64,000 nucleotides of DNA from Mycobacterium sp. 3519A (GTDB taxonomy: Bacteria; Actinomycetota; Actinomycetes; Mycobacteriales; Mycobacteriaceae), in NCBI RefSeq assembly GCF_900240945.1, contig NZ_OESG01000014.1:242922-306921 (forward strand), given 5' to 3'. How positions within the stretch are numbered: position 1 is the first letter of the stretch; each line of letters starts with the position of its first letter. Positions 36,575-48,643 of the stretch are shown piece by piece. The notes below the pieces were generated by a model. The model had not been told where the DNA came from. It did not search any database and saw nothing but the letters and a program-made list of their open reading frames with translations. The position numbers and the translations under genes were made by a program.

Positions 36575-37039
36575 GTGGCGCGCTACGGATCTCCCGACGA
36601 CCCGAACAATCCCGACAACCAACCGACCGCCTACATCAACTACGGCGACTACGGCCCGCCGACAGCCGAACCGGTGCCCTGGTACCGCAAACCCGCTGCG
36701 CTGGTCTCCTTCGGCGCCATCGGCGCGGTGCTGATCGCGCTGATCATCTTCGGCCTCGTCAAACTCCTCACCGGCGGCGACGCGCCGGAGCCCGCGACCA
36801 CGCTCACCCCCATCACCCGCACCACCACATCGGTGACCGCACCGACGACCACCACGGCCGCCACCACGACCACAGAGCCGACCACCACCGACGAGACCAC
36901 GACAACCACCACCACCGAGCCCACGACGACGACCACCACCACGACCACGACAACCACGACGACGACCGAACCGAGCGTCAGCACGAGCGTCAGCACCAGC
37001 ACGGTCACTCAGACCGTCACCGTTTCGCCGACGCCCTAG
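36575..37039 (+). CDS. Small membrane protein with PWY motif and polythreonine tail
   Basis: 154 residues, GTG start. Cytoplasmic part rich in Asn, Pro, Tyr (DDPNNPDNQPTAYINYGDYG) ending in EPVPWYRKP, one membrane span (GAIGAVLIALIIFGLVKLL), then a Thr-rich tail containing a run of 15 threonines and the end SVSTSVSTSTVTQTVTV. Paralogue in layout of the preceding gene, 17 bases apart. Converges with iniC, overlapping its stop by four bases. Polythreonine tracts are encoded by mixed ACC/ACG/ACA codons, so this is selected protein composition, not simple DNA slippage alone. Confidence 0.65.
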   Translation: MARYGSPDDPNNPDNQPTAYINYGDYGPPTAEPVPWYRKPAALVSFGAIGAVLIALIIFGLVKLLTGGDAPEPATTLTPITRTTTSVTAPTTTTAATTTTEPTTTDETTTTTTTEPTTTTTTTTTTTTTTTEPSVSTSVSTSTVTQTVTVSPTP

Positions 37040-38532
37040 CGGCCCCTCGCCGCGTATTCGGCGACCAACGCCTCGGCGCTGCGAACCGCCGCGCGGCAGG
37101 CCCGTGTGGTGAACGGATCGTTGAGCGGATGGTCGGCGCGGCGGCGCCAGCGTTGCGCGGCCGCGAACGCCGCCCGCGGCCCGTCGTAGGGTGCGTCGGG
37201 TTGCAGCCCAAGCCTGCTGGCTGCGTCGGTGCCGGAACCGCCGATGATGCGCCGCAGCGACGCCATCTCGTCCTCGTTCAAAGTCGTTGGGCGCGAACGC
37301 AATGCGCTCAACAGCCGGAGCTCCTCGAATGCGTGGGTGTCGGCAAGCAGCGGGTCGATGTCGGCGAGAATGTAGCGCGTGGCGTAGATCGGGTTGGCCT
37401 GCACGAACTGCCGCAGTGATAGCAGCGCGGTGTGCGCCTTCAGCAGATCCGAGCGCTGCGCGAACTGCTGGTCGATCACATCGCGAAGCGCGACCAGACC
37501 GCTGCGCTCCAGCAGTTCGTCGGCGAGCGCCACCGAATCGCTGACGCCGGCCCGCAACACCGCGATGGAGATCCTGATGCCGAACATGCCGAACCGGTCC
37601 AGCAGTGCGGCCCTGGTGGCGGCATCAACAGGCAACGAACTGTCCTCCCGCACGAAGCGGTCCACCGACAGCATCGCCTTGGTGAGTTCGGCGGCATCCA
37701 CTCCCGCCAACTTCTCCAGCGCGACGAACTCGCTCTGCCGCAGCGTGCGGGCGGTCAACGCCAACAGACCCGACACCGGCACCACGGCCTGGCAGATGCC
37801 GGTCTTGTCCATCTCGGCGGTGAACCGCTTGGCCACGTCCTTGGCTGAGAGCATCGCGTCGATGCGGCCCGCGCCGATCTCGTCGGCGCGCGACGCCACC
37901 CCGATCACCCCGAGCGCGCCCGTCGACCCGCCGACCAACTCGCCGATCTGCTTGAGCAGGGCGATATCGGCCGCGTTCAGCGTGCGCAACAGGAACACCA
38001 CCGCGTCGACGCGCGGGACGCCGTCCTCCGGCACCAACAACCGTAGTGTGCGTTCGGAGACGTCGCGGCTCAGCGAGGACGTGCCCGGGGTGTCGATGAT
38101 GGTCGCATCGATCAATTCGGCTGCGGGCCATTCGACGTCGAGATCGGCGATGTCCTCCGGGTCGAGGCTGGCGAAGTCGAACGTCAGGCCGGCCGAACCG
38201 TTCGAGCCGCGGGCGATCGGCACGTTCGACCGCCTGCCGCCGCGATGGTTGGCCGTCACCTTCGGGATCGGGCCGTGCCGGAACCAGGTGACGATGCGGG
38301 TGGCCTCGGTGGCGTCGGTGGGCGCGATGTCCTCGCCCACAAGGGCATTCACGAGGGTGGACTTGCCCGCCTTCAGCGTGCCCGCGAGCGCGATGCGGAT
38401 CGGCTGATTGAGCCGGTAGCCGATGCGCTCCAACTCGTTGTGCACATCAGGCCGATTCCGGTACGCCGGATCGTTGCGGTACGCCTGGATCGTGCCGCCC
38501 AGGATCGCCCGCACCTGATCGCTCGTGCTCAT
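37036..38532 (-). CDS. iniC: IniC, dynamin-like GTPase of the isoniazid-inducible operon
   Basis: 498 residues. GTPase domain with P-loop GTLKAGKS (residues 51-58) and G3 motif IIDTPGTSSLS; the helical part follows. It lies 47 bases after iniA and is the last gene of iniB-iniA-iniC. The operon responds to cell-wall-acting drugs such as isoniazid and ethambutol. IniA and IniC are bacterial dynamin-like proteins thought to remodel or repair membrane; this is family knowledge. Confidence 0.92.
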   Translation of the reverse strand: MSTSDQVRAILGGTIQAYRNDPAYRNRPDVHNELERIGYRLNQPIRIALAGTLKAGKSTLVNALVGEDIAPTDATEATRIVTWFRHGPIPKVTANHRGGRRSNVPIARGSNGSAGLTFDFASLDPEDIADLDVEWPAAELIDATIIDTPGTSSLSRDVSERTLRLLVPEDGVPRVDAVVFLLRTLNAADIALLKQIGELVGGSTGALGVIGVASRADEIGAGRIDAMLSAKDVAKRFTAEMDKTGICQAVVPVSGLLALTARTLRQSEFVALEKLAGVDAAELTKAMLSVDRFVREDSSLPVDAATRAALLDRFGMFGIRISIAVLRAGVSDSVALADELLERSGLVALRDVIDQQFAQRSDLLKAHTALLSLRQFVQANPIYATRYILADIDPLLADTHAFEELRLLSALRSRPTTLNEDEMASLRRIIGGSGTDAASRLGLQPDAPYDGPRAAFAAAQRWRRRADHPLNDPFTTRACRAAVRSAEALVAEYAARGR

Positions 38533-38579: not shown

Positions 38580-40439
38580 TTAGGTGGTCCCCACAGGCTC
38601 TCGGGCTGCCTGCCCGGCATCCGGCGCCAGCTTGACGGCGTGCTCAGTCACCTGTTTGAGGATGTTGAGCTGGCGTTCCAGTTCGCGGATTCGGGTGTTG
38701 CGCTCGTTTTCCTCCAACGCCGCCGACGCGATGGTGGCCTGCAGCGACTCGTTGAGCGAGCGGGTGGTCTGGTTGGCGATGCCGCGGTAGTGGTCGCGCA
38801 GTTGGCGCTGGATTCCCTTGAGCCGGTCCCGGGATTCCTTCGACACGACGAACGACACGTCGTCGACGAACCGCCGCACGTTCAGCTTGGCCTCGTTGCG
38901 GACCCGCATCATCCGGTTCTCCATGTCTTCGCGATAGGCCTTGCGGCCCAACAGAAGACCGGCACCCAGCGACAGCGGGTTGAACATGCCGAGTCCCGCG
39001 AACGACGTCAGCATGCCGAACATCAGCACGCCGCCGTACGAGCCACGCATTCCGGTGACCACCTTGTGCCCGGTCTTGATCGGCTTGGCCTCCAACTTGG
39101 CCAGCGACTTCAATTCGCCGAAGCTCGCGCCCATTTCGCTGGCGTCGAGTTGCGGCATCTTGATGGCCTCGAGCCCCGCCTCGACGAATGTCCGCGCCAC
39201 CTCCTGGGCGAGCACCTCGGCCCGCTGATAGGCCCACACGAAGTTGTCGCCGACGGCCGTCGCGATCGCCTCCTCCACTTCGGCGCCGATCTCCGCCCAG
39301 TGGTGCGTCGGATCGGTGGTGTCGATGACGTGCTCGGTGTGCTGGCTGATGGCACGGAACCGGGCGCGCAGATCGTGGTCGACATCGGCTGTCAGGTCGG
39401 CGATTCCGTCGTTGAGCACCTGCTGCCACAGCGCGGTCTGCTGCAACGCGTCCTGCGCCTCCTGTTTACGCTGCTCCAGATCGGCCTTCAACCGGTCGCG
39501 GGCTTCGGGGTCGTTGAGCGCGGACAGCTCCGAGTCGGCCGCCAGCGTCAAATGCTCAGCGGCGGACCGGATCTCGGCGAGCACCTGATCGCGCACCCGG
39601 TCGTTCTCCCGCGACAGCACCTTCTCGCTGAGGAACTTGACGATGGCCGGGAAATTGGACTCCTCGTTGAGTTCCTTGTCGTTCAGTTGGATCGCGTGGC
39701 TGCGCAGCAGCGACGACGCCGGAATGATCGGTATCGACAGGCCGGCCCGCTGCAGGTGGGCCTTGTTGGTTTCGACGATCTGGCGCCAGTGCGGGTAGAG
39801 ATCCGTCTTGGTGGCGACAATCGTTGCGACAGGGCAGATTTCAAAGGCCTGCCGGATGAACGTCATCTCGGGTTCGGTGAATTCCTGGCTGGTGTCGCTG
39901 ACCATCAGCATCGCGTCCGCGTCGGGCAGCAGCCCAAGCGTGGCCGACAGGTGCGGCTGGCCAAGGCCGCCGACGCCGGGGGTGTCGACGAACACCAGAC
40001 CGCCCTTGAGCAGCGGGCTGTTCGCGGTCACCGCGACACGCAGCACCTGCCTGCCACCCGCCGCGGGGTGGCGGCGCAGATCCTGTTTGATGTCGGCGAT
40101 CGGGATCTCGACCTCCTCGGGCTCGCCGTCGTCGGCGCCCGCGACGATCAACTTCGCGCTGGCCTGCTCGGCGAACGACACCATGGTCGCCAGCACCGTC
40201 GTCTCGTCGTCGCCGACCCGCGACACCGGAACGTTCAGCAGCGAATTGAGCAGTTGGCTCTTGCCCTGCTTCAGCTGCCCGGCGATGACCACCCGGATCT
40301 GGGGGTCGGTGATCCGCTCGTTGGCCCTTGCCATCCGCTCGACCAGGTCGCCGCGGCCCTGAGCCTCGGCGATCTTGCTCGTGTGGTCGATCAGTTCAAC
40401 GATGACCTTGACCTTGCGGGGGTCATTCGGCTGCGTCAT
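38580..40439 (-). CDS. iniA: IniA, dynamin-like membrane-remodelling GTPase
   Basis: 619 residues. P-loop GQLKQGKS at residues 54-61, G3 motif FVDTPGVGG, G4-like ATKTDLYP. A long helical bundle with QERKQEA-type heptads (DRLKADLEQRKQEAQDALQQ) follows, and a hydrophobic membrane loop at about residues 470-500 (GGVLMFGMLTSFAGLGMF). Structures of mycobacterial IniA show membrane fission activity. It follows iniB across a 93-base gap that contains two hairpins, so its level may be set apart from that of iniB. Confidence 0.94.
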   Translation of the reverse strand: MTQPNDPRKVKVIVELIDHTSKIAEAQGRGDLVERMARANERITDPQIRVVIAGQLKQGKSQLLNSLLNVPVSRVGDDETTVLATMVSFAEQASAKLIVAGADDGEPEEVEIPIADIKQDLRRHPAAGGRQVLRVAVTANSPLLKGGLVFVDTPGVGGLGQPHLSATLGLLPDADAMLMVSDTSQEFTEPEMTFIRQAFEICPVATIVATKTDLYPHWRQIVETNKAHLQRAGLSIPIIPASSLLRSHAIQLNDKELNEESNFPAIVKFLSEKVLSRENDRVRDQVLAEIRSAAEHLTLAADSELSALNDPEARDRLKADLEQRKQEAQDALQQTALWQQVLNDGIADLTADVDHDLRARFRAISQHTEHVIDTTDPTHHWAEIGAEVEEAIATAVGDNFVWAYQRAEVLAQEVARTFVEAGLEAIKMPQLDASEMGASFGELKSLAKLEAKPIKTGHKVVTGMRGSYGGVLMFGMLTSFAGLGMFNPLSLGAGLLLGRKAYREDMENRMMRVRNEAKLNVRRFVDDVSFVVSKESRDRLKGIQRQLRDHYRGIANQTTRSLNESLQATIASAALEENERNTRIRELERQLNILKQVTEHAVKLAPDAGQAAREPVGTT

Positions 40440-40532: not shown

Positions 40533-41531
40533 TCAGAACAGATCGACGTCGACGCCCTGGTGGATGTCGGTGTCGTGGCTGTCGTGCGTCGAGTTGTCGA
40601 TGTTGTCGTGGCTGTCGTGCGTCGAGTTGTCGGTGTTGTGGCTGTTCGACGAGTTGTCGTCGTGGCTGGCGTCCACGTTGCCGGAGATGTCCCCGCCGTG
40701 GGTTTCGACGGTGGTGACGTCGCCGCCGGCCGTGGTGGTCGTGGTCTGCGTCGGAGCGATGACCACGCCGCCGCCTGCGCCGCCGGTCGCATTGCCGCCG
40801 TCGCCGCCGCCACCCGTGAGAATGCCGCCGCCGTGGCCGCCGTCGCCACCGACCGCACCGCCACCGCTGGTGTCGATGTCGCCGGTCTTGACGACCGGGC
40901 CTTCGTTGCCCGAGATGACGTCACCGTCACCGCTGTTGTGGATGCTGCCGGAGCTGTCGCTGGTGTTGCCGACGCCGCCGGCCTGAACGGTCGAACCCTC
41001 GCCTGCGAGGATGTCGCCGGTGTTGGCGCCGACGTTGCCGTCGCCGACCACATTGCCGTCACCTTCGACGTTGGTGTTGTCGATGTCACCTGCGGTGCCG
41101 GTGTTGATCACGCTGCCGTGGTCGGCGTTGTTCGTGGTCTTGTCGCCGAAGGTGATGTCGCCGAAGTCCAGGTTGACGTTGCCGACGCCCTGCTGCTGAT
41201 CCTCACCCGCGTGGTTGACCACGTTGGTCTCGGGGCTCAGGAACCGGGTGTCGTTGTGGCTCAGCGTGTCGTTGTTGCTGAACGCCGAGGTCTGCGGGAC
41301 GAAGGCCAGCCCGTGGGTCTCGGCCACCGCCTGCTGCAGTCCGTGCACCGGGTTGCCGCCACCGTGCAGCACCGCAGCGGGCGCCACGGTCGCGGCAACG
41401 GCGTTCACCTGAGCCGCCGTCACACCCTGAACGCCTGCGTTGGCCATGGCGCGGTCGGGGTCGTTGACGAAGGCCTGGGCCTGAACCGGGTCGCGGAACA
41501 GGTCGAGAATCCAATCGATCACGTTGGTCAT
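40533..41531 (-). CDS. iniB: IniB, isoniazid-inducible Gly/Asn-rich protein
   Basis: 332 residues. The IniB N-terminal domain covers about residues 1-60 (MTNVIDWILDLFRDPVQAQA, NDPDRAMANAGVQGVTAAQV). The remainder is low-complexity: pentapeptide-like Asn/Asp/Gly stretches (NVEGDGNVVGDGNVGANTGD), a Gly-rich segment and a C-terminal His/Asp/Ser segment with NSTHDSHD repeated twice. No signal peptide is visible. First gene of iniBAC. The 253-base upstream gap holds three TTAGGGG copies. Function unknown; the domain with its abundance in stress suggests a structural or granule-like role. Confidence 0.9.
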   Translation of the reverse strand: MTNVIDWILDLFRDPVQAQAFVNDPDRAMANAGVQGVTAAQVNAVAATVAPAAVLHGGGNPVHGLQQAVAETHGLAFVPQTSAFSNNDTLSHNDTRFLSPETNVVNHAGEDQQQGVGNVNLDFGDITFGDKTTNNADHGSVINTGTAGDIDNTNVEGDGNVVGDGNVGANTGDILAGEGSTVQAGGVGNTSDSSGSIHNSGDGDVISGNEGPVVKTGDIDTSGGGAVGGDGGHGGGILTGGGGDGGNATGGAGGGVVIAPTQTTTTTAGGDVTTVETHGGDISGNVDASHDDNSSNSHNTDNSTHDSHDNIDNSTHDSHDTDIHQGVDVDLF

Positions 41532-41682
41532 TTCTGTGGTCCTTTTCTTGTGTGTTTCGGGGGTCCTGGTCGCCGGCGCTCCGGCGAACTGCTGACAACG
41601 TTATGGAGCGGACGACAGCTGGGAAACGGGGCCGAATCCCCTCCCTACCGGCAGCCCTCCCGGGATGCCGACTGGGGGATCG

Positions 41683-41708
41683 TTAGGGGATTAGGGGCTC
41701 GTTAGGGG
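41683..41708. promoter_or_regulatory. TTAGGGG triplet upstream of iniB
   Basis: Three exact copies of TTAGGGG at 41683-41689, 41691-41697 and 41702-41708 in the gap between iniB and the Rv0340-like gene, about 150-175 bases upstream of iniB. The same heptamer recurs in the other intergenic regions of this locus. Proposed binding site of the linked LuxR-type regulator; inference. Confidence 0.6.
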
Positions 41709-41784
41709 ACATTGAATTTCCGCACGTCAAACGCACAAAATGCGCGGCCCGAGCGGACCGCGCATTTCGAAGTGCCGTCGAAGG

Positions 41785-42327
41785 TCAGGAATCGAAGATG
41801 TCCAATCCCGTCCCGTCGGCGTCGAGATGGTGATCCTCGGGGGCGGCGTGGCTCCAGGTGTCCTCGGTCGGTGTGTCGATGATCGGCACATCGTCGACGA
41901 CTGGGCCGTCGAAGTGCAGCGACGCATCGTCGGCGGTAGCCACGTCCGGCACGCCGGCGTCGGCGAGCATGTCGACGCCCGACTGCACCGCGGCCCCGGG
42001 ATCGTCGACGACGTTGGCGGCCATCGCGTGCACGTCGTCGACGGCAACGGTCGGCACGTGGTCGTCGAAGGCATCGAACGCGGCGGTCGCGGCCCCGCTC
42101 GTCCACACATTGCTGGCATGGTCGTCGACCTGCGCGTCAGCCCCCGTCGACGGCACCGCCATCGACAGCGACTCGGACACGACGGGGATCAGATTGTTGA
42201 CGTCCACGCTGGTCACATCGGTCAAATTGGCGTCGGCGATGGCCTGCGCCGGGTCAGCAGCGTAGGCTGCGGCGGCGTCGGGGTCACGCACCACCGACAT
42301 CACGAAGTCGAGTAGCGAGTTTGCCAT
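41785..42327 (-). CDS. IniB N-terminal-domain protein, Rv0340-like
   Basis: 180 residues with the same opening domain as IniB (MANSLLDFVMSVVRDPDAAA, DPAQAIADANLTDVTSVDV). The rest is rich in Asp, Val and Ala with acidic VDD motifs and ends DADGTGLDIFDS. Rv0340, of about 179 residues, occupies the same place before iniB in M. tuberculosis. The ATG is preceded by a strong GGAGGG. It is divergent from the Hsp70-like gene across a 199-base gap carrying three TTAGGGG copies. Confidence 0.8.
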   Translation of the reverse strand: MANSLLDFVMSVVRDPDAAAAYAADPAQAIADANLTDVTSVDVNNLIPVVSESLSMAVPSTGADAQVDDHASNVWTSGAATAAFDAFDDHVPTVAVDDVHAMAANVVDDPGAAVQSGVDMLADAGVPDVATADDASLHFDGPVVDDVPIIDTPTEDTWSHAAPEDHHLDADGTGLDIFDS

Positions 42328-42444
42328 GGAACACCCTCCTTTCCATTGCAGAGATAGCAGGCAACAGCACTAAGGCCTGACCCGATGCTATCGGCGCGGC
42401 AGCCGCCGCAGATCGGTGCGAAACCCAGCTCTGCCGCTGGGGCA

Positions 42445-42484
42445 TTAGGGGACGCGGCGTTAGGGGTTTACCACCCATTAGGGG
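42445..42484. promoter_or_regulatory. TTAGGGG triplet between the Rv0340-like and Hsp70-like genes
   Basis: Exact copies of TTAGGGG at 42445-42451, 42460-42466 and 42478-42484, spaced 15 and 18 bases, ending 42 bases before the plus-strand ATG and about 120 bases before the minus-strand one. A shared operator for both directions is likely; inference. Confidence 0.6.
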
Positions 42485-42526
42485 AATCAGCGGCTATGGT
42501 TTTGAACGGTCGAACACGAGGAGACC

Positions 42527-44299
42527 ATGAACGACTCACTTGGGTTGTCCATCGGGATGACCAACTTGGTGGCCGCCAGGATCGGCCGCCCGCCGGTCAT
42601 GCGCCGTTCGGTGCTCACGTTGTTCAACGACCGGGCACCTGAAGTCGGGGTGCCGAGCGAGAACCCGAATTTGACCCAACCGGGTCTGGTGCTGACCGGC
42701 TTCGTCGAGCGGGTCGGTGACCCGGTTCCGCTGGTCGCCACCGACGGCTCTCCGCACCGAGGGGAGCGGGTGCTGGTGGAGGCGCTCGATGCGATGGCGC
42801 AGGCGGTCGGTGGCGGCTCGCCCGTCGCGATCGCGGTACCCGCGCACTGGGGTCCCGGCACCATCGGTGCGCTGCGGGGCGCGCTGCGCGCGAAGCAGAG
42901 CCTCGCCCCCAACGGGGTGCCGGCCGCGCTCATCCCGGATTCCGTTGCCGCCCTTGCCGCTTTGCAGGCCGCACCGGGATTGCCGTCGACGGGCGTGGTC
43001 GCGCTGGTGGACCTCGGCGCCAGCGGCACCAGCGTCACGCTGGCCGACGCGGCCGCGAACTTCGCCCCCATAGGTCAGACCGTCCGGTATCCCGACTTCT
43101 CCGGCGACCAGATCGACCAGGGATTGCTCAACCACGTGCTGGCGGGTATCGCCGACGCAAGCAATGCCGATCCGACCGGCACGCTGGGCCTTGGCTCGCT
43201 GGCCCGGTTGCGCGAGGACGCCAGGTTGGCCAAGGAGCGGCTGTCCGCTGAGACCGCGACCGTCGTGCCCGTCGAACTGCCCGGGTTCAACTCCGACGTC
43301 AGGGTGACCAGGAACGAACTCGAGACCATCATCGCCGAGCCGCTCGCCGGGCTGCTCAATACCATCGAAGAAACGTTGCAGCGCAACAACATTGCGGTGG
43401 CGAACGTCTCGGCGGTGGCGACCGTCGGCGGCGGGGCCAACATTCCGCTGGTCACCCAGCAGCTCTCGGCGCGATTACGCGCCCCCGTCGTCACCACGCC
43501 GCAGTCCGGGGTCAACATCGCGACCGGCGCGGCGCTGGCCGCCGAACGCGGCCTGGAGGCCGACGCCCCGACCGGCATGGCGCCCACGGGTTTGGCGCCG
43601 GCCGCCGATGCGCCGACGGGCATGGCCGCAGCCGGGTGGGCGGCAGGCGCGGCGGGCGTGGCGGCGGCTGACGACGCCGGATCCTCCACCTTCCGCGCGT
43701 TGGCGTGGTCGCAGGACGATACGCCCGGCGAACCGGTGCCGTACTCCGGTGAGGACTACACCTTCGACCAGGGCGTCACCGGCGCGCGGCCGCAGATGGA
43801 GTTCTCGCACGAAGAGGAGGGCTACGGGCCCGAGACCGGCCCGCTGCCGTGGTACAAGCGTCCGCCCGTGCTGTTCGGCGCGGCGGCCGCCGCGGTGCTG
43901 TTGGCGATCGGCGGGCTGGCGATCACGCTGACCAGCGGCAGCGGCAGCTCCAACCCGGTGACCGAGACGGCGACGCAGGGCGAAACCGGGCCCAAGCCCA
44001 CCGAACCGGTCACCGAGGGCGCACCCGTGACGGTCACCGTCACCGGCCCCAACGGGGAGCCGAGCACGACGGTCGTGCCGTCGCCGCCGCCGTCGCCGAG
44101 CGAAACCACCAGCCCGACGACCACCACCACCACGATTACCACGACAACGACGACGACCACCACCACCACGACGACCACCCCGCCGACCACCACCACGACC
44201 AAGCCTCCGACCACGACCACCCAGCCGCCGACGACCACACAACAGCAGGAGACCACCACCACGGCCGCCGCGTTGTCGCCGGTGACGACCACACCGTGA
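42527..44299 (+). CDS. Membrane-anchored degenerate Hsp70-like protein with Thr-rich tail
   Basis: 590 residues. Residues 1-345 have the actin/Hsp70 ATPase fold: first phosphate loop GLSIGMTNLVAA, second loop VDLGASGTSVTL, PDSVAALAAL, adenosine motif VATVGGGANIPLV. The catalytic Asp of the first loop is Ser and the following Thr is Met when aligned with Dna[13 protein letters not shown]. There is no peptide-binding domain. Instead an Ala-rich linker leads to GPLPWYKRP, one membrane span (VLFGAAAAAVLLAIGGLAIT) and an outer tail with Thr runs. Divergent from the IniB-domain gene and only 3 bases before the LuxR gene. Probably a nucleotide-binding sensor or scaffold rather than a chaperone. Confidence 0.8.
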   Translation: MNDSLGLSIGMTNLVAARIGRPPVMRRSVLTLFNDRAPEVGVPSENPNLTQPGLVLTGFVERVGDPVPLVATDGSPHRGERVLVEALDAMAQAVGGGSPVAIAVPAHWGPGTIGALRGALRAKQSLAPNGVPAALIPDSVAALAALQAAPGLPSTGVVALVDLGASGTSVTLADAAANFAPIGQTVRYPDFSGDQIDQGLLNHVLAGIADASNADPTGTLGLGSLARLREDARLAKERLSAETATVVPVELPGFNSDVRVTRNELETIIAEPLAGLLNTIEETLQRNNIAVANVSAVATVGGGANIPLVTQQLSARLRAPVVTTPQSGVNIATGAALAAERGLEADAPTGMAPTGLAPAADAPTGMAAAGWAAGAAGVAAADDAGSSTFRALAWSQDDTPGEPVPYSGEDYTFDQGVTGARPQMEFSHEEEGYGPETGPLPWYKRPPVLFGAAAAAVLLAIGGLAITLTSGSGSSNPVTETATQGETGPKPTEPVTEGAPVTVTVTGPNGEPSTTVVPSPPPSPSETTSPTTTTTTITTTTTTTTTTTTTTPPTTTTTKPPTTTTQPPTTTQQQETTTTAAALSPVTTTP

Positions 44300-44302
44300 G
44301 CC

Positions 44303-46816
44303 ATGGTCACCAGCCCGGCGTCCGATCCGCTGACCGACATCCCGCCGGCCGCACGCGACGTGGTCGCGGCTGTGACGGCCGCGCCGACCGCGCCGGTCAA
44401 GGTGCTGGTCTCCGGCGGCATCGGCACCGGTAAGACTTCGGTACTCGCAGCGATCCGGTCGGCGTTGCGCACCGCGGAGGTCGCGGTGCTGACCCGGCCG
44501 CCGAGAAATGGCGACGAGACGGCGTCGGCGGTCGTCATCGACGACGCGCACCTGCTCGACGACACACAACTCGGTGTCGTCGCGGACCTGGTCGCCGATC
44601 CGGTATCGACAGTCGTCGTCGCCGCCGAACCCCTCGCCCACCGGCAGGCGCTGCGGACGCTGCGCATCGCCATCGAGCGGGAGAACCCTGTCGTCTCGCT
44701 TGGCGCGTTCAGCCCGGCCGAGGTCAACCGGCTCACGACCGAAACACTGGGTAGCTCAACGAGTTCCGAGATCATCCGGTCGCTGATGGTCGCGACCGCG
44801 GGGCTGCCGTTCCTGCTGCGGCCAGCGATCGCGGCGGCGGTCTCACCCGACGGTGAGGCCCCTGCGAACGCGATCATGCAGGCCGCGCGGTTCGCGTTGA
44901 TCGAGCGACTGCGCCACCTCGAGGAACCGTTGCTCGACACGCTGCTGGTGTCGTCGCTGAGCCCGGATCTGGGACCTGACGACGTCGCGGCGGCGCTGCG
45001 GGTCGGCGCCGAGGAGGCGCAGGATCTCGTCGACCGCGCGCGTGCCAGCGGGCTGATCGAGCCGTCGCACAGCCAGACCTTCATCCGGTCGGTGCACCGC
45101 TGCATCGCGGGCATCATCGGCGCGGCGCGCCACCACGACACCGAGCTGTCACTGCTGGTGTCCCAACTCGAATCATCAACGCTGTCAAGTGATCTCGCGT
45201 TACGGATGGCCGAACACGGGCTGCGCGACGACCGGCTTGCGGCCGCGCTGACCGACCTCGCATCCCGCGCCCATGGTCACCCGGCGCGCGCCGCCCGGCT
45301 GTACCGGGCCGCCGCCGACGCGGGCGCGACGGCGCTGTCCGCCCGGCTTGCCGACGCGCTGGCACAGACCGGTGACTGCACCGCCGCGGGCCGACTGGCC
45401 GACGAACTGCTCGGGTCCGAGGACATGGCCGAGCGGGTGGCGGCGGTCCGCATCGCCGCCAGCATCGCGATGCACGACGGCAGCGCCACCCAGGCGGCCG
45501 ACCTGTTCCGTTGGCTGGGGCCGTATCCGGACACCTTCATCAGTGCGGCGGGGGCCGTCGTCGCGATCGCCGCGGGTGACGCCGAGGCGGCGCGGACCGC
45601 GCTGAGCGCCGAGACCGCCGGGCCACCGACGTCCACCGCCCGCGCCGCCCGCAGCCTCGCCGAAGGGCTGCTGCTGTCGCTGGACCAACCGTTCCCCACT
45701 GCCATTGCGCGGCTCAGCCAGTCGATCACCGCCGAACAACTCCCGACGGGTGTCGCACCGGACACCCCCGCGGCGCTGGTGACGTTGGCCGCGCTGCACG
45801 GCGGCGATCCGGTGCGCGCCCGCAGCGTGATCGGCCGTGCCGTCCGCACTGGGGCAGACGAACCCTTCACCGTGCATCGGCACCGCCTGCTGCACGGCTG
45901 GGTGCGCATGCAGGACGGTCAATTGTCGGCAGCGGCGGCCGACGTCGCGTCGACGGCCGATGTTGCGCTGCACCGCCGCGACGCGTTGTGGGCCGCCGCG
46001 TTGCAGACCGCGATCGCCAGACGCAGCGGCGACACCGGCGGCGTGCAGAAGCATTGGTATGCCGCGATGGAAGTGCTTGCCGAATACTCACCCGACCTGT
46101 TCTGCCTGCTGCCGCTGGGCGAACTGTGGGTGGCCGCCGCAAGGATGCGGTTGGTCGATCGGCTGCAACACACGATGACCGAGGCGTTCGGACTGCTCGA
46201 GTCGCTCGACAATCCCGTGCTGTGGTCAGTGCCGTTGCACTGGGCGGGCGTGCACGCGGGCATCCTGGCCAATTCGCCGGAAGCCGTTGCGCCCCATGGT
46301 CAGGCGCTGACGGCCGCGGCGCCGCACAGCGCGTTCGCCAAGGCGCTCGCCAAGGCGGGCCGCACCTGGCTGCGGGTACTGGCCAACCACGTCGACGTGG
46401 ACGAGGTGACCTCCGCGGCGCGCGGGTTGTCACAGTTCGGCATGACATGGGACGGCACCCGACTGGCCAGCCAGGCCGCGCTGCAGACGCCGGATGGTCG
46501 CGTCTCCGGCGCGATGCTGCAACTGGCCCGCGACCTCAAACAGACCGCTGCCGTCGACGAGCCGCCAGGGCTGGAGCCGACGGCGCCCGTCGCGGAAGGC
46601 AAGCCGCGGCCCACGTCGTCGCGGCTGTCGGACCGTGAGCGCGAAGTCGCCGAACTGCTGTTGCTCGGGATGCCGTACCGCGATATCGGCAGCCAACTGT
46701 TCATCTCGGCCAAGACCGTCGAACATCACGTGGCGCGGATCCGGCGCAGGCTCGGCGCCGAATCCCGCTCCGAGATGTTGTCGATGCTGCGCGCCATGCT
46801 GACGTCTCAGTCGTAA
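44303..46816 (+). CDS. iniR: LuxR-family ATPase regulator, IniR/Rv0339c-like
   Basis: 837 residues, close to Rv0339c in size. Walker A GGIGTGKT (residues 38-45), Walker B AVVIDDAHLL, then a long alpha-helical repeat region (TPR/MalT-like) and a C-terminal LuxR helix-turn-helix: LSDREREVAELLLLGMPYRD, then AKTVEHHVARIRRRLG. This is the LAL/MalT layout in which a ligand-bound ATPase oligomerises on DNA. The M. tuberculosis homologue was named IniR as activator of iniBAC with a sugar ligand (recalled). It starts 3 bases after the Hsp70-like gene, so the two are cotranscribed. The TTAGGGG repeats nearby are its best candidate sites. Confidence 0.85.
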   Translation: MVTSPASDPLTDIPPAARDVVAAVTAAPTAPVKVLVSGGIGTGKTSVLAAIRSALRTAEVAVLTRPPRNGDETASAVVIDDAHLLDDTQLGVVADLVADPVSTVVVAAEPLAHRQALRTLRIAIERENPVVSLGAFSPAEVNRLTTETLGSSTSSEIIRSLMVATAGLPFLLRPAIAAAVSPDGEAPANAIMQAARFALIERLRHLEEPLLDTLLVSSLSPDLGPDDVAAALRVGAEEAQDLVDRARASGLIEPSHSQTFIRSVHRCIAGIIGAARHHDTELSLLVSQLESSTLSSDLALRMAEHGLRDDRLAAALTDLASRAHGHPARAARLYRAAADAGATALSARLADALAQTGDCTAAGRLADELLGSEDMAERVAAVRIAASIAMHDGSATQAADLFRWLGPYPDTFISAAGAVVAIAAGDAEAARTALSAETAGPPTSTARAARSLAEGLLLSLDQPFPTAIARLSQSITAEQLPTGVAPDTPAALVTLAALHGGDPVRARSVIGRAVRTGADEPFTVHRHRLLHGWVRMQDGQLSAAAADVASTADVALHRRDALWAAALQTAIARRSGDTGGVQKHWYAAMEVLAEYSPDLFCLLPLGELWVAAARMRLVDRLQHTMTEAFGLLESLDNPVLWSVPLHWAGVHAGILANSPEAVAPHGQALTAAAPHSAFAKALAKAGRTWLRVLANHVDVDEVTSAARGLSQFGMTWDGTRLASQAALQTPDGRVSGAMLQLARDLKQTAAVDEPPGLEPTAPVAEGKPRPTSSRLSDREREVAELLLLGMPYRDIGSQLFISAKTVEHHVARIRRRLGAESRSEMLSMLRAMLTSQS

Positions 46817-46834
46817 CCCCCAACGCGGCGCAAT

Positions 46835-46855
46835 CCCCTAACCAAGATCCCCTAT
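46835..46855. promoter_or_regulatory. TTAGGGG sites upstream of the second Hsp70-like gene
   Basis: On the minus strand TTAGGGG at 46841-46835 (exact) and ATAGGGG at 46855-46849 (one mismatch), 14 bases apart, in the 107-base gap between iniR and the second Hsp70-like gene. The orientation is opposite to the copies at 42445 and 48637. Confidence 0.5.
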
Positions 46856-46923
46856 CGGGCCCGGCCCAGTGACGGGTGCGGCACCGGATTTGCTGTAACG
46901 CCGTTCGCCATACCGTCGATCGC

Positions 46924-48636
46924 ATGTTGAATTCGCCAGGCAACCACGGCCGTTCGATCGGCCTGTCGGTCGGCGCGACGAACCTCGCCGGCACCCGCGA
47001 CGGGTATGCCGCCATCCTGCGTCCCGCCGAGCTGACCCTGCACGGTCAACGACTGACCGGGTTCGTCGACCGCGTCGGCGACCCGGTGCCGCTGATCGCA
47101 CCCGACGGCGCCACGTACCGGTCGGAGCGCCTGCTCGCCGACGCACTGGCCGCGATGGCCGACGCGATCACCGACGGGTTGCCGGTGACCGACGCCGCGG
47201 TGACGGTGCCCGCGCACTGGCGTCCGTCGATCGCCGACATTCTGCGCAGGAACCTGCGCGGCAAGCTGCCGGTGGTGTCCGATGCGACGGCGGCGCTGAC
47301 GGCGTTGCGCAACAACCCGGGCCTGCCCACGCACGGCGTCATCGTGCTGTGCGACTTCGGTGGCAGCGGCACCAGCATCACGCTGGCCAATGCGGCACGG
47401 GACTTCTCGGTGTTCGGCGAGACGGTCCGATTCTGCGATTTCTCCGGCGATCTGATCGATCAGGCGCTGCTGGCGCACGTGGTCGGCGGACTCGCCGACA
47501 TCGACCCGTCGGGCACCGCGATGGTCGGTTCGCTGGTGCGGTTGCGCGACGAATGCAGGCGGGCCAAGGAGCGACTGTCCGCGGAAACCGCGACGGCGGT
47601 GGTCGCCGACCTGCCCGGCCAACGCGCGGACATCCGCGTCACCCGCACCGAACTCGAGGACCTGATGCGGGCGCCACTCACGGATTTCCTTGCCGCACTT
47701 GACGATACGCTGGAGCGCTACGGCGTGCCCGCAGCCAGTGTCACTGCCGTCGCCACTGTCGGTGGCGGAGCGCGGATACCGCTGATCACCCAGCGGCTGT
47801 CCGAACATCTGCGCGCCCCCGTCGTCACCACGCGTTCGCCCGCGCTGACCGCCGCCGAGGGCGCCGCGCTGATCGCGCACCGAAGCCGCGTCGTCGACGA
47901 AGCCACCGTGCTGACGCCGACCGCCACCGCACTGGTGCCTGCCGCGCAGCCGCTGGCCTGGTCCGAGGGCGACGTCAGCCAGGACGTGCTGCCCTACAGC
48001 GACGCGACCCAGTCCCGCCCCGAGGTGTCCTTCCGCCGCGAGCAGTGGCGCGACGACGAGCCACCGCGGCGCAGTCCGCTGGTGTTGTTCGGGCTCTCGG
48101 CGGTCGCCGCGGCCGTCGCCGCAGCGGTGTTCGGCTTCACGCTCCTCAACGACACCGCGACGACACCGGTCGACGCGGCAAGCACGTCGACCACCACGAC
48201 CACCCCCCAACCGCCTGCGGCGCCGGCCACTCTCCCAGCTACCCCGGCGCCGCAGGCCCCTCAAATCACCACCGTCGTGGTGCAGCAACCCGCGCCCCGC
48301 TTTCAGGCGCCGCGGCGAGTGCAGCCGCAGGCGCCCGTGCCGCATCAACCGCCGGTGGCCCCTCCCCCGACATCCGAGACGCCAGAGACGCCGGAGCCGA
48401 CGGATCCCACTCCGCCGCCGACGTCCGAGACTCCACCCACGTCGCCCGAGCCGCCGACGTCGCCCAAGCCCCCGCCGATCGATCCAGGCCCCGGCGACGG
48501 ATCCGGCACCGGCACCGGGACCGGCGGTACCGAAACCGGTGGTACCGGAACCGGAACGGAGACAAGCGGACCCGGCTCGCAGACGGGTGCCGCCGGCACC
48601 GGCGACGGCGGCACCTCGACCACCCCCGAGGCGTAG
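46924..48636 (+). CDS. Second membrane-anchored Hsp70-like protein with Pro/Thr/Gly-rich tail
   Basis: 570 residues. Residues 1-330 have the same actin/Hsp70 fold as the protein at 42527: GLSVGATNLAG, CDFGGSGTSITL, VATVGGGARIPLI, and the shared RAKERLSAETAT helix. The catalytic Asp of the first loop is again Ser. One membrane span lies at about 385-407 (LVLFGLSAVAAAVAAAVFGF). The outer tail is Pro/Thr-rich (PPPTSETPPTSPEPPTSP) and ends in a Gly/Thr repeat (GTGTGTGGTETGGTGTGT). It lacks the PWY motif before the span. Located directly after iniR; with the first copy it brackets the regulator. Confidence 0.8.
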   Translation: MLNSPGNHGRSIGLSVGATNLAGTRDGYAAILRPAELTLHGQRLTGFVDRVGDPVPLIAPDGATYRSERLLADALAAMADAITDGLPVTDAAVTVPAHWRPSIADILRRNLRGKLPVVSDATAALTALRNNPGLPTHGVIVLCDFGGSGTSITLANAARDFSVFGETVRFCDFSGDLIDQALLAHVVGGLADIDPSGTAMVGSLVRLRDECRRAKERLSAETATAVVADLPGQRADIRVTRTELEDLMRAPLTDFLAALDDTLERYGVPAASVTAVATVGGGARIPLITQRLSEHLRAPVVTTRSPALTAAEGAALIAHRSRVVDEATVLTPTATALVPAAQPLAWSEGDVSQDVLPYSDATQSRPEVSFRREQWRDDEPPRRSPLVLFGLSAVAAAVAAAVFGFTLLNDTATTPVDAASTSTTTTTPQPPAAPATLPATPAPQAPQITTVVVQQPAPRFQAPRRVQPQAPVPHQPPVAPPPTSETPETPEPTDPTPPPTSETPPTSPEPPTSPKPPPIDPGPGDGSGTGTGTGGTETGGTGTGTETSGPGSQTGAAGTGDGGTSTTPEA

Positions 48637-48643
48637 TTAGGGG
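48637..48643 (+). promoter_or_regulatory. TTAGGGG copy at the end of the ini locus
   Basis: A single exact TTAGGGG directly after the stop of the second Hsp70-like gene, 120 bases upstream of etfD. It may extend control to etfD or be a chance end of the series. Confidence 0.35.

What the first reader, a model, noticed from the sequence alone, without database searches (positions are those of the whole stretch)
41683..48643. TTAGGGG heptamer clustered in every intergenic region of the ini locus: candidate IniR box
Exact TTAGGGG occurs three times before iniB (41683, 41691, 41702), three times between the Rv0340-like and Hsp70-like genes (42445, 42460, 42478), once plus a one-mismatch copy before the second Hsp70-like gene (46835-46855, reverse) and once after it (48637). 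I noticed no other copies elsewhere in the window while reading. The series coincides with the genes around a LuxR-type ATPase regulator. Chance clustering in GC-rich DNA is unlikely. I infer one regulon covering iniBAC, the IniB-domain gene, both Hsp70-like genes and perhaps iniR itself.
Basis: partly seen in the sequence, partly recalled or inferred. Interest (0 to 1): 0.75.

Follow-up and report, generated by a model that had tools for sequence, protein, structure and literature searches.

The report
Switch sequence for mycobacterial wall-stress genes
A seven-letter DNA word, TTAGGGG, stands in repeated copies at fixed distances before the iniB, iniB-like and second Hsp70-like genes of this mycobacterium, recurs before iniB-type genes in related bacterial families, and is likely the landing site through which the regulator IniR would switch these cell-wall stress genes on.

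Summary
In detail: all 8 exact TTAGGGG copies of the window lie at the ini locus, and elsewhere in the genome (49 copies in 7.3 Mb) no two lie within 1 kb. The repeats are conserved at base level. A pair, nTAGGGGnTTAGGGG, precedes iniB in 51 of 51 mycobacterial regions (37 of 37 found by IniR similarity alone), with a TANNNT -10 hexamer 78 or 79 bases downstream; flanking columns are saturated (97% versus 30% pairwise identity). iniB* and the second Hsp70-like gene share one promoter frame. Pairs occur in 175 of 181 iniR-carrying and 2 of 67 iniR-lacking Mycobacterium genomes. Seven of nine examined pairs remote from iniR stand before an iniB-type gene. The box recurs in iniB/Hsp70/iniR loci of Micromonospora, Pseudonocardiaceae and others, with a conserved stretch of IniR's recognition helix. 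Best reading: TTAGGGG is the operator of IniR, the STAND/MalT-like activator of iniBAC; binding is inferred. The published G-quadruplex reading of the M. tuberculosis copy is not supported as the conserved feature. Corrections: 48637 is not conserved and probably chance; the Hsp70-1/iniR direction is uncertain; published M. tuberculosis RNA-seq named iniBAC alone.

The parts
37036..38532 (-). iniC (dynamin-like GTPase)
   Evidence: Pfam Dynamin_N; order iniB-iniA-iniC
38580..40439 (-). iniA (dynamin-like GTPase)
   Evidence: Pfam Dynamin_N
40533..41531 (-). iniB
   Evidence: NCBIfam IniB_NTERM NF038175, 75.6 bits, cut-off 40
41598..41603 (-). predicted -10 of iniB (TAACGT)
   Evidence: TANNNT 78 or 79 bases after the box pair in 51 of 51 regions; coordinates
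41637..41642 (-). proximal element AGGGGA of iniB promoter, 39 bp before -10
   Evidence: its two central G columns invariant in 51 of 51; coordinates
41662..41666 (-). degenerate element (GGGAT on +), about 60 bp before -10 of iniB
   Evidence: two columns invariant in 51 of 51
41683..41689 (+). IniR box A1 (TTAGGGG), CCCCTAA in iniB sense
41691..41697 (+). IniR box A2, spaced 8 from A1
41702..41708 (+). IniR box A3; degenerate (TAGGG) in many relatives
41785..42327 (-). iniB* (Rv0340-family, IniB-domain gene)
   Evidence: NCBIfam NF038176, 216 bits, cut-off 100
42385..42390 (-). predicted -10 of iniB* (TAGCAT)
   Evidence: at column 61 in 45 of 48; coordinates
42411..42418 (-). CACCGATC element, -35 region of iniB*
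   Evidence: columns 33-40 conserved
42422..42427 (-). proximal element TGGGTT of iniB* promoter
   Evidence: columns 24-29 conserved
42445..42451 (+). IniR box B1, 61 bp before -10 of iniB*
42460..42466 (+). IniR box B2, 76 bp before -10 of iniB*
42478..42484 (+). IniR box B3, 94 bp before -10 of iniB*
42495..42500 (+). candidate -10 of the Hsp70-1/iniR operon (TATGGT), low confidence
   Evidence: position varies between species
42527..44299 (+). Hsp70-like gene 1 (ATPase half; Thr-rich tail by reading)
   Evidence: Pfam HSP70 at 154-339
44303..46816 (+). iniR, STAND/LuxR-type activator
   Evidence: NCBIfam NF038181 1431.7 bits, cut-off 750; GerE domain; model and fold search
46835..46841 (-). 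IniR box C1 (CCCCTAA in Hsp70-2 sense), 76 bp before -10
46849..46855 (-). IniR box C2 (CCCCTAT in Hsp70-2 sense), 62 bp before -10
46873..46878 (+). proximal element CGGGTG of Hsp70-2 promoter
46911..46916 (+). predicted -10 of Hsp70-2 (TACCGT); transcript would be leaderless
   Evidence: a box 75-76 bp before TANNNT in 9 of 9 loci with this gene
46924..48636 (+). Hsp70-like gene 2
   Evidence: Pfam HSP70
48637..48643 (+). isolated TTAGGGG, probably not a functional box
   Evidence: TTAGGGC in closest relative

Best explanation
The TTAGGGG copies at 41683-41708, 42445-42484 and 46835-46855 are most likely operator boxes through which the MalT-like activator IniR is predicted to switch on iniBAC, the iniB-like gene iniB* and the second Hsp70-like gene. 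Shown here: the boxes are conserved base by base, stand at fixed distances from a conserved TANNNT hexamer, read CCCCTAA in the sense of the gene at these three promoters, and go with the ini gene set across several families. Inferred: that the hexamer is the -10 element, and that envelope stress, read as free trehalose in the published work, converts IniR to an ATP-bound oligomer. The oligomer would cover two to three boxes between about 61 and 105 bp before the -10 element plus a proximal GGGG/GGGT about 37-39 bp before it, and would recruit RNA polymerase to promoters whose -35 slot holds CACCGAT/CCCCGTTTC rather than a usual hexamer. The central array may also act on the Hsp70-1/iniR operon; that step is the least certain.
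For: Conservation: in 51 of 51 mycobacterial iniB upstream regions the pair matches within two mismatches (40 exact) and TAGGGG is invariant in both copies. Eleven of the 51 had been fetched because they carry pairs; of the 37 found by IniR similarity alone, 28 are exact, 7 have one and 2 have two mismatches, and 37 of 37 have the hexamer in place. Box columns are 96.8% identical pairwise, flanking columns 29.9%. Density is 9.34 per kb in these regions against 0.025 per kb in the rest of the same loci. Geometry: iniB* 45 of 48; Hsp70-2: box at 75-76 in 9 of 9, at 61-62 in 8 of 9. Co-occurrence: 175 of 181 iniR-positive and 2 of 67 iniR-negative genomes have pairs. Trans action: 7 of 9 examined pair sites remote from iniR precede an iniB-type gene. 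Depth: box in 29 of 30 named distant loci, and in 31 of 34 further loci with ini genes, 0 of 5 without. Helix stretch ISAKTVEHH conserved where the ATPase part is 28% identical. Published ChIP-seq puts IniR directly upstream of iniBAC in M. tuberculosis (PMC5760070, passages).
Against: No binding experiment on these boxes. iniR and iniA are absent together (iniA in 1 of 67 iniR-negative genomes), so co-occurrence cannot separate IniR from another factor of the same system. Boot et al. report that only iniBAC changed in the M. tuberculosis iniR mutant, although that species has boxes before iniR (Table 2 of PMC5515968). A third IniB-domain gene of this genome has no exact box or array within the 1.5 kb fetched on each side. 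Six iniR-positive genomes lack the spaced pair: three have degenerate or wider-spaced copies, three are unresolved. Three non-Mycobacterium ini loci have no exact box. Helix sequences like IniR's are common in LuxR-type proteins (recalled), so that match alone is weak.
Confidence: 0.85

Rival explanations
1. The boxes are bound by another regulator that acts on the ini promoters, for example HpoR, MtrA or an unknown factor, and not by IniR.
For: HpoR (PMC13413693, passages) and MtrA (PMC2945938, passages) are reported to bind the iniBAC or iniB promoter. Phyletic co-occurrence fits any member of the ini system.
Against: The published HpoR palindrome and MtrA heptamers match the 51 iniB upstream regions about as well as one shuffle of each. 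Of the seven window proteins scanned, IniR alone has a DNA-binding domain; a stretch of its recognition helix is conserved with the box; and published ChIP finds IniR itself at iniBAC.
Confidence: 0.09
2. The G runs are conserved because they form a G-quadruplex near the promoters, as proposed for the M. tuberculosis copy upstream of Rv0339c (iniR).
For: Sci Rep 2017 (PMC5515968, Table 2 passage) lists this region as a predicted G-quadruplex; array A of the window has several GGGG runs.
Against: A canonical motif (runs of 3 or more G, loops up to 7) is present in 9 of 51 iniB arrays and 2 of 49 iniB* arrays; with loops up to 12 it is 34 of 51 and 2 of 49. The T and A of TAGGGG are invariant in 51 of 51, which a quadruplex does not need. 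Spacing to -10 is fixed.
Confidence: 0.03
3. The boxes belong to the core promoter of a special sigma factor rather than to an activator.
For: Conserved -35-like elements (CACCGATC, TCCCCGATG, CCCCGTTTC) accompany the -10 hexamers.
Against: Boxes start 61-105 bp before the -10 element, vary in number, and outside Mycobacterium the pair ends 78-80 or 67-69 bp before it. That suits an upstream activator, not a sigma factor.
Confidence: 0.02
4. Chance clustering in GC-rich DNA.
For: Single copies occur elsewhere (41 outside the window), and the 48637 copy is not conserved.
Against: Shuffles, genome-wide spacing and cross-species conservation exclude it for the three arrays.
Confidence: 0.01

Closest known systems
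IniR-iniBAC system of Mycobacterium (Boot et al. 2017, PMC5760070: abstract, sections 10, 12, 17 and passages read)
   Same: IniR equivalog and iniBAC; the paper shows by ChIP-seq that IniR binds directly upstream of iniBAC, names the iniB* gene, and notes a dnaK-like gene next to iniR in M. smegmatis.
   Different: In the parts I read, and by a term search of the main text ('binding site' 0, 'palindrom' 0), no operator is defined. Here the heptamer, its spacing, the promoter frame, likely further targets and the spread beyond Mycobacterium are added.
MalT and its MalT boxes (E. coli; PMC4381067 and PMC7567727, passages read)
   Same: STAND ATPase with C-terminal LuxR-type HTH; several short asymmetric G-rich boxes per promoter; inducer-driven multimer bound cooperatively.
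   Different: E. coli box core GGA(T/G)GA, given as GGGGA(T/G)GAGG, versus TTAGGGG here; regulon is envelope stress, published cue trehalose.
Predicted G-quadruplex upstream of Rv0339c (PMC5515968, passages read)
   Same: The corresponding DNA: two TTAGGGG copies 16 bp apart before iniR in M. tuberculosis.
   Different: There it is listed as a G-quadruplex; here the conserved feature is the heptamer and its spacing.
iniBAC promoter analysis of Alland et al. 2000 (J Bacteriol)
   Same: Same promoter in M. tuberculosis.
   Different: Not held in the library; nothing seen, so overlap with elements described there cannot be excluded.

Membership tests
IniR regulon (IniR operator) | IniR gene present at the locus | tested here: met
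   NF038181 1431.7 bits versus cut-off 750
IniR regulon (IniR operator) | Conserved site upstream of iniBAC | tested here: met
   51 of 51 regions within two mismatches; 37 of 37 not chosen for the pair
IniR regulon (IniR operator) | Site present at target genes far from iniR | tested here: met
   7 of 9 examined remote pairs precede an iniB-type gene
IniR regulon (IniR operator) | IniR binds the box and activates | not testable with these tools
   ChIP upstream of iniBAC is published for M. tuberculosis (PMC5760070), not at box resolution in what I read
IniR regulon (IniR operator) | Genes other than iniBAC respond to iniR | not testable with these tools
   predicted for iniB* and Hsp70-2; published M. 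tuberculosis RNA-seq named only iniBAC
STAND / MalT-like activators | NTPase with Walker A and B | tested here: met
   G41, G43 invariant and K44 nearly so in the GGIGTGK stretch; D80 D81 invariant in 26 sequences
STAND / MalT-like activators | Superhelical (TPR-like) sensor | tested here: inconclusive
   model is all-helical from residue 258 to 751; best fold hit is STAND-TPR protein 6mfv, and a chain of maltose-system entry 8bob is among the hits (which molecule, not checked), both with low TM-scores
STAND / MalT-like activators | C-terminal LuxR/GerE HTH | tested here: met
   PF00196, E 2e-14
MalT-box operators | Box GGGGA(T/G)GAGG | tested here: not met
   the conserved unit is TTAGGGG
G-quadruplex elements | Four G runs with short loops conserved | tested here: not met
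   9 of 51 and 2 of 49 arrays

The most novel reading that the evidence does not exclude
TTAGGGG and IniR form an ancient envelope-stress switch of the order Mycobacteriales that predates mycolic-acid walls: a dynamin-like pair (IniA, IniC), an IniB-domain protein, a Hsp70-like ATPase and IniR travel together under one operator from Micromonospora and Lentzea to Mycobacterium, and the isoniazid- and ethambutol-inducible iniBAC promoter is one specialised branch of it.
Probability: 0.55. Interest if true: 0.75.

Novelty: new member of a known kind. Interest (0 to 1): 0.62.

Why it matters
The iniBAC promoter is a standard reporter for cell-wall damage in mycobacteria, yet I found no description of what IniR reads on DNA in the searches that I ran (several listings were capped and supplements were not readable). 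A base-level operator with a fixed promoter frame would make IniR targets predictable in any genome. It adds a second Hsp70-like gene and iniB* as likely targets, offers a different reading of a published G-quadruplex candidate, and turns the question of what the ini system does into one that can be tested in harmless actinomycetes.

Tried and rejected
Rejected: 48637 as a box. Rejected: a remote near-pair in the own genome (C13:2027507, L138). It is unchanged in the nearest relative at 90% flank identity, not seen in the five other relatives whose matching stretch was compared, and has no TANNNT within 200 bp on either side. Rejected as ini sites: six paired sites in Micromonosporaceae-like genomes (L115-L120), with no ini gene found near and mostly in C/G-rich runs, and two remote pairs in Mycobacterium (L089, L090). 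Rejected: HpoR and MtrA motifs as the conserved feature; G-quadruplex. Led nowhere: a plasmid search (no match), a phage search (one 74-residue HTH match), a literature search for iniA and iniC with Micromonospora (0 papers), and PMC8265627 (passages, not used).

Limits: sequences were not thinned for relatedness before counts. Of the 51 iniB regions, 11 had been fetched because they carry pairs and 2 because they lack exact ones. The nine remote pairs were picked from capped listings; others, such as one in G093, were not examined, and whether the iniB-type genes there are moved or second copies was not settled. Of 89 non-Mycobacterium genomes with an IniR-family match I fetched 40, and one of these held only 405 bases.
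Full report
WHAT IS THERE. The window is a Mycobacterium ini locus of the fast-grower type; the closest named relative, Mycobacterium sp. ACS1612, has IniR 95% identical. On the minus strand lie iniC (37036-38532), iniA (38580-40439), iniB (40533-41531) and iniB* (41785-42327, NCBIfam Rv0340 family). On the plus strand lie an Hsp70-like gene (42527-44299), iniR (44303-46816; NCBIfam NF038181, 1431.7 bits against a cut-off of 750) and a second Hsp70-like gene (46924-48636), followed by an iron-sulfur oxidoreductase gene.

THE OBSERVATION. The whole genome has 49. Six of these have a neighbour within 18 bp, and all six are at ini; the next closest two copies are 1,400 bp apart. The copy at 48637 is TTAGGGC in the closest relative although the close flanks are unchanged, so I drop it.

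CONSERVATION. In mycobacterial loci with upstream sequence, TTAGGGG recurs in two arrays. Array A, before iniB, was aligned in 51 regions: the window, 37 loci found by IniR similarity, 11 regions fetched because they carry pairs and 2 fetched because they lack the spaced pair; related species were not thinned. The best match to TTAGGGGnTTAGGGG has 0 mismatches in 40, 1 in 9 and 2 in 2, and TAGGGG is invariant in both copies; for the 37 alone the numbers are 28, 7 and 2. The distance to the iniB start is 133-171 bp, and in the scan of exact copies the orientation is CCCCTAA in the iniB sense without exception. Box columns are 96.8% identical pairwise, flanking columns 29.9%, so the flanks are saturated and the boxes appear held by selection. 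Array B, between iniB* and the Hsp70-1 or iniR start, matches a 15-bp-spaced pair within two mismatches in 48 of 49; the exception, L023, has two exact copies 16 bp apart. CCCCTAA/TTAGGGG is the commonest heptamer with two or more copies in both upstream regions (41 of 51 and 47 of 49). Its density is 159 in 17,020 bases there, against 15 in 608,022 bases of the rest of the same loci.

PROMOTER FRAME. In the iniB sense a TANNNT hexamer follows the pair after 79 bases in 41 and after 78 in 10 of 51; of the 37 loci not chosen for the pair, 37 have it. Between them lie a CCC element with two invariant columns, AGGGGA with two invariant columns, and CCCGTTTC with three. In iniB* the hexamer (TAGCAT in the window) is at column 61 from box B1 in 45 of 48, with TGGGTT and CACCGATC conserved before it. 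Measured from the first base of the hexamer, iniB* boxes of the window start at 61, 76 and 94. The second Hsp70-like gene was found directly after iniR in 9 of the 57 mycobacterial entries listed, some of which have little downstream sequence. There, CCCCTA copies start 75-76 bp before a TANNNT in 9 of 9, 61-62 in 8 of 9 and 93 in 4 of 9; one of the nine, L013, has a second TANNNT. The iniB boxes in the window start at 86, 94 and 105, with the degenerate CCC at about 60 (coordinates). A proximal GGGG or GGGT lies about 37-39 before the hexamer in all three window promoters. Two promoters of different genes thus superpose within a base or so. Toward Hsp70-1/iniR the hexamer is loose (TANNNT at 68-70 in 32 of 48) and in the window it lies at 50. 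I therefore do not claim a conserved activation frame in that direction.

WHO CARRIES IT. In 248 Mycobacterium genomes (drawn from a larger group) the spaced pattern TTAGGGGN{1,12}TTAGGGG occurs in 177, IniR in 181. The cross table is 175 with both, 6 iniR only, 2 pattern only, 65 neither. Of the 6, G082 and G157 have single or wider-spaced copies at both places and G173 has degenerate arrays; G089, G100 and G210 stay unresolved, because the fetched stretches do not reach the place or hold only GTAGGGG. Of the 2, G005 is an incomplete genome that has iniA; G116 has neither gene. iniA was found in 1 of the 67 iniR-negative genomes: the system is absent whole, so this table cannot tell IniR from another member of the system.

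PAIRS FAR FROM iniR. I examined nine pair sites far from iniR or on other contigs in Mycobacterium, picked from capped listings: L080-L084, L089, L090 and L110, L112. Seven stand before an iniB-type gene (matches over the N-terminal domain or more) at similar distance; iniA and iniC were not found beside L080-L084. L089 lies inside a coding region, and L090 has no ini gene near. The box therefore goes with iniB-type genes also away from iniR, as expected for a trans-acting factor. Whether these genes are moved or second copies was not settled.

BEYOND THE GENUS. Among 30 named distant IniR loci (Micromonospora, Lentzea, Solihabitans, Actinophytocola, one Microbacterium and one unclassified Micromonosporaceae), 29 carry exact TTAGGGG between the IniB-type or iniA gene and the Hsp70-like or iniR gene, with iniA and iniC relatives beside them. 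The exception, Microbacterium L073, has no iniA/iniC in the fetched stretch and a changed recognition helix. An order-wide scan for the tight pair gave 39 of 298 genomes: 21 Mycobacterium, 13 of the family called f14, 5 of f15, and 0 of 20 other members of the window's family. All 12 f14 sites fetched are ini loci; a thirteenth, in G379, was not fetched. Of the f15 sites, L121 is an ini locus and L122 stands before another IniB-domain gene with a TANNNT 79 bases after the pair, while L115-L120 show no ini gene. Of 89 non-Mycobacterium genomes with an IniR-family match I fetched 40 upstream regions. Of 39 usable ones, 31 have an exact box: 31 of 34 with ini genes nearby and 0 of 5 without (L188, with only a weak Hsp70 match, counted as without). 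The misses with ini genes are L149, L161 and L170. In 16 iniB-type promoters with a tight pair (12 of f14, L121 and three named), the hexamer follows after 78-80 bases in 10 and after 67-69 in 6, about one helical turn apart, behind a CCCCGATG-type element in most. The IniR helix stretch ISAKTVEHH is conserved at 90% or more in the Mycobacterium (50), Micromonospora (21) and Pseudonocardiaceae (21) sets, while the ATPase part of the latter two is 28% identical to the window protein. Similar helices are common in LuxR-type proteins (recalled).

MECHANISM. IniR has a Walker-type ATPase, an all-helical middle and a GerE HTH. A model (mean pLDDT 87.9) finds a STAND-TPR protein as best fold match and a chain of a maltose-system entry lower down, both with low TM-scores. 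MalT, as described in PMC4381067 (passages), multimerises on its inducer and binds several MalT boxes cooperatively; PMC7567727 (passages) gives its E. coli box as GGGGA(T/G)GAGG. By analogy (inference) IniR would bind TTAGGGG arrays as an oligomer and recruit RNA polymerase. Published work (PMC5760070: abstract, sections 10, 12, 17 and passages) shows that IniR activates iniBAC, that trehalose is a cue, and that a ChIP-seq peak lies directly upstream of iniBAC in M. tuberculosis. The M. tuberculosis array before iniR is printed in PMC5515968 (Table 2 passage) as a predicted G-quadruplex with two TTAGGGG 16 bp apart.

AGAINST. Boot et al. state that only iniBAC changed in the iniR mutant and that drug treatment does not raise iniR mRNA. 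This weighs against iniB* and iniR as targets in M. tuberculosis. The third IniB-domain gene of this genome has no array in the fetched flanks. G-quadruplex motifs with loops up to 12 are present in 34 of 51 iniB arrays, though in only 2 of 49 iniB* arrays. Alland et al. 2000 on the iniBAC promoter is not held and could already describe part of array A. Searches of the library for an IniR box found none, but one search listed 20 of 63 papers, one search listed 20 of 32 and one search listed 10 of 858, and I opened only the few named here; supplements could not be read.

VERDICT. It is ordinary in kind, a transcription-factor box, but unusually well defined, adds likely targets, and reveals a widely spread ini circuit.

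Noticed in passing
L050-L079, L121, L123-L134: iniA/iniC-like dynamins, an IniB-domain gene, an Hsp70-like gene and an IniR relative form a recurrent cluster in Micromonospora, Lentzea and other actinobacteria that, from recalled knowledge, lack mycolic acids.
   Followed up: partly
42527-44299 and 46924-48636: Two Hsp70-like proteins match only the ATPase half of Hsp70; by reading they end in Thr- or Pro-rich tails. Their role in the ini system is unknown.
   Followed up: no
L137 (own genome C14:110319-110465): A third IniB-domain gene in the genome with no TTAGGGG array in the fetched flanks.
   Followed up: partly
L138 around 6000 (own genome C13:2027507): A near-perfect pair CTAGGGGATTAGGGG outside ini, unchanged in the nearest relative only, with no -10 hexamer in frame.
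   Followed up: yes
L084 and L110: iniB-type genes more than 1 Mb from iniR that carry the box pair, in genomes that also have a pair near iniR.
   Followed up: partly
L122 7001-7443: In an unnamed f15 genome a second IniB-domain gene, apart from its ini locus, has a tight box pair and a TANNNT 79 bases after it.
   Followed up: partly
L092 16048-17364: An additional Hsp70-like gene beyond iniC in one genome (G082).
   Followed up: no
42411-42418 and similar places in other loci: A conserved CACCGATC/CCCCGATG element fills the -35 region of iniB*-type promoters across families; whether it belongs to the activator site or the core promoter is open.
   Followed up: partly
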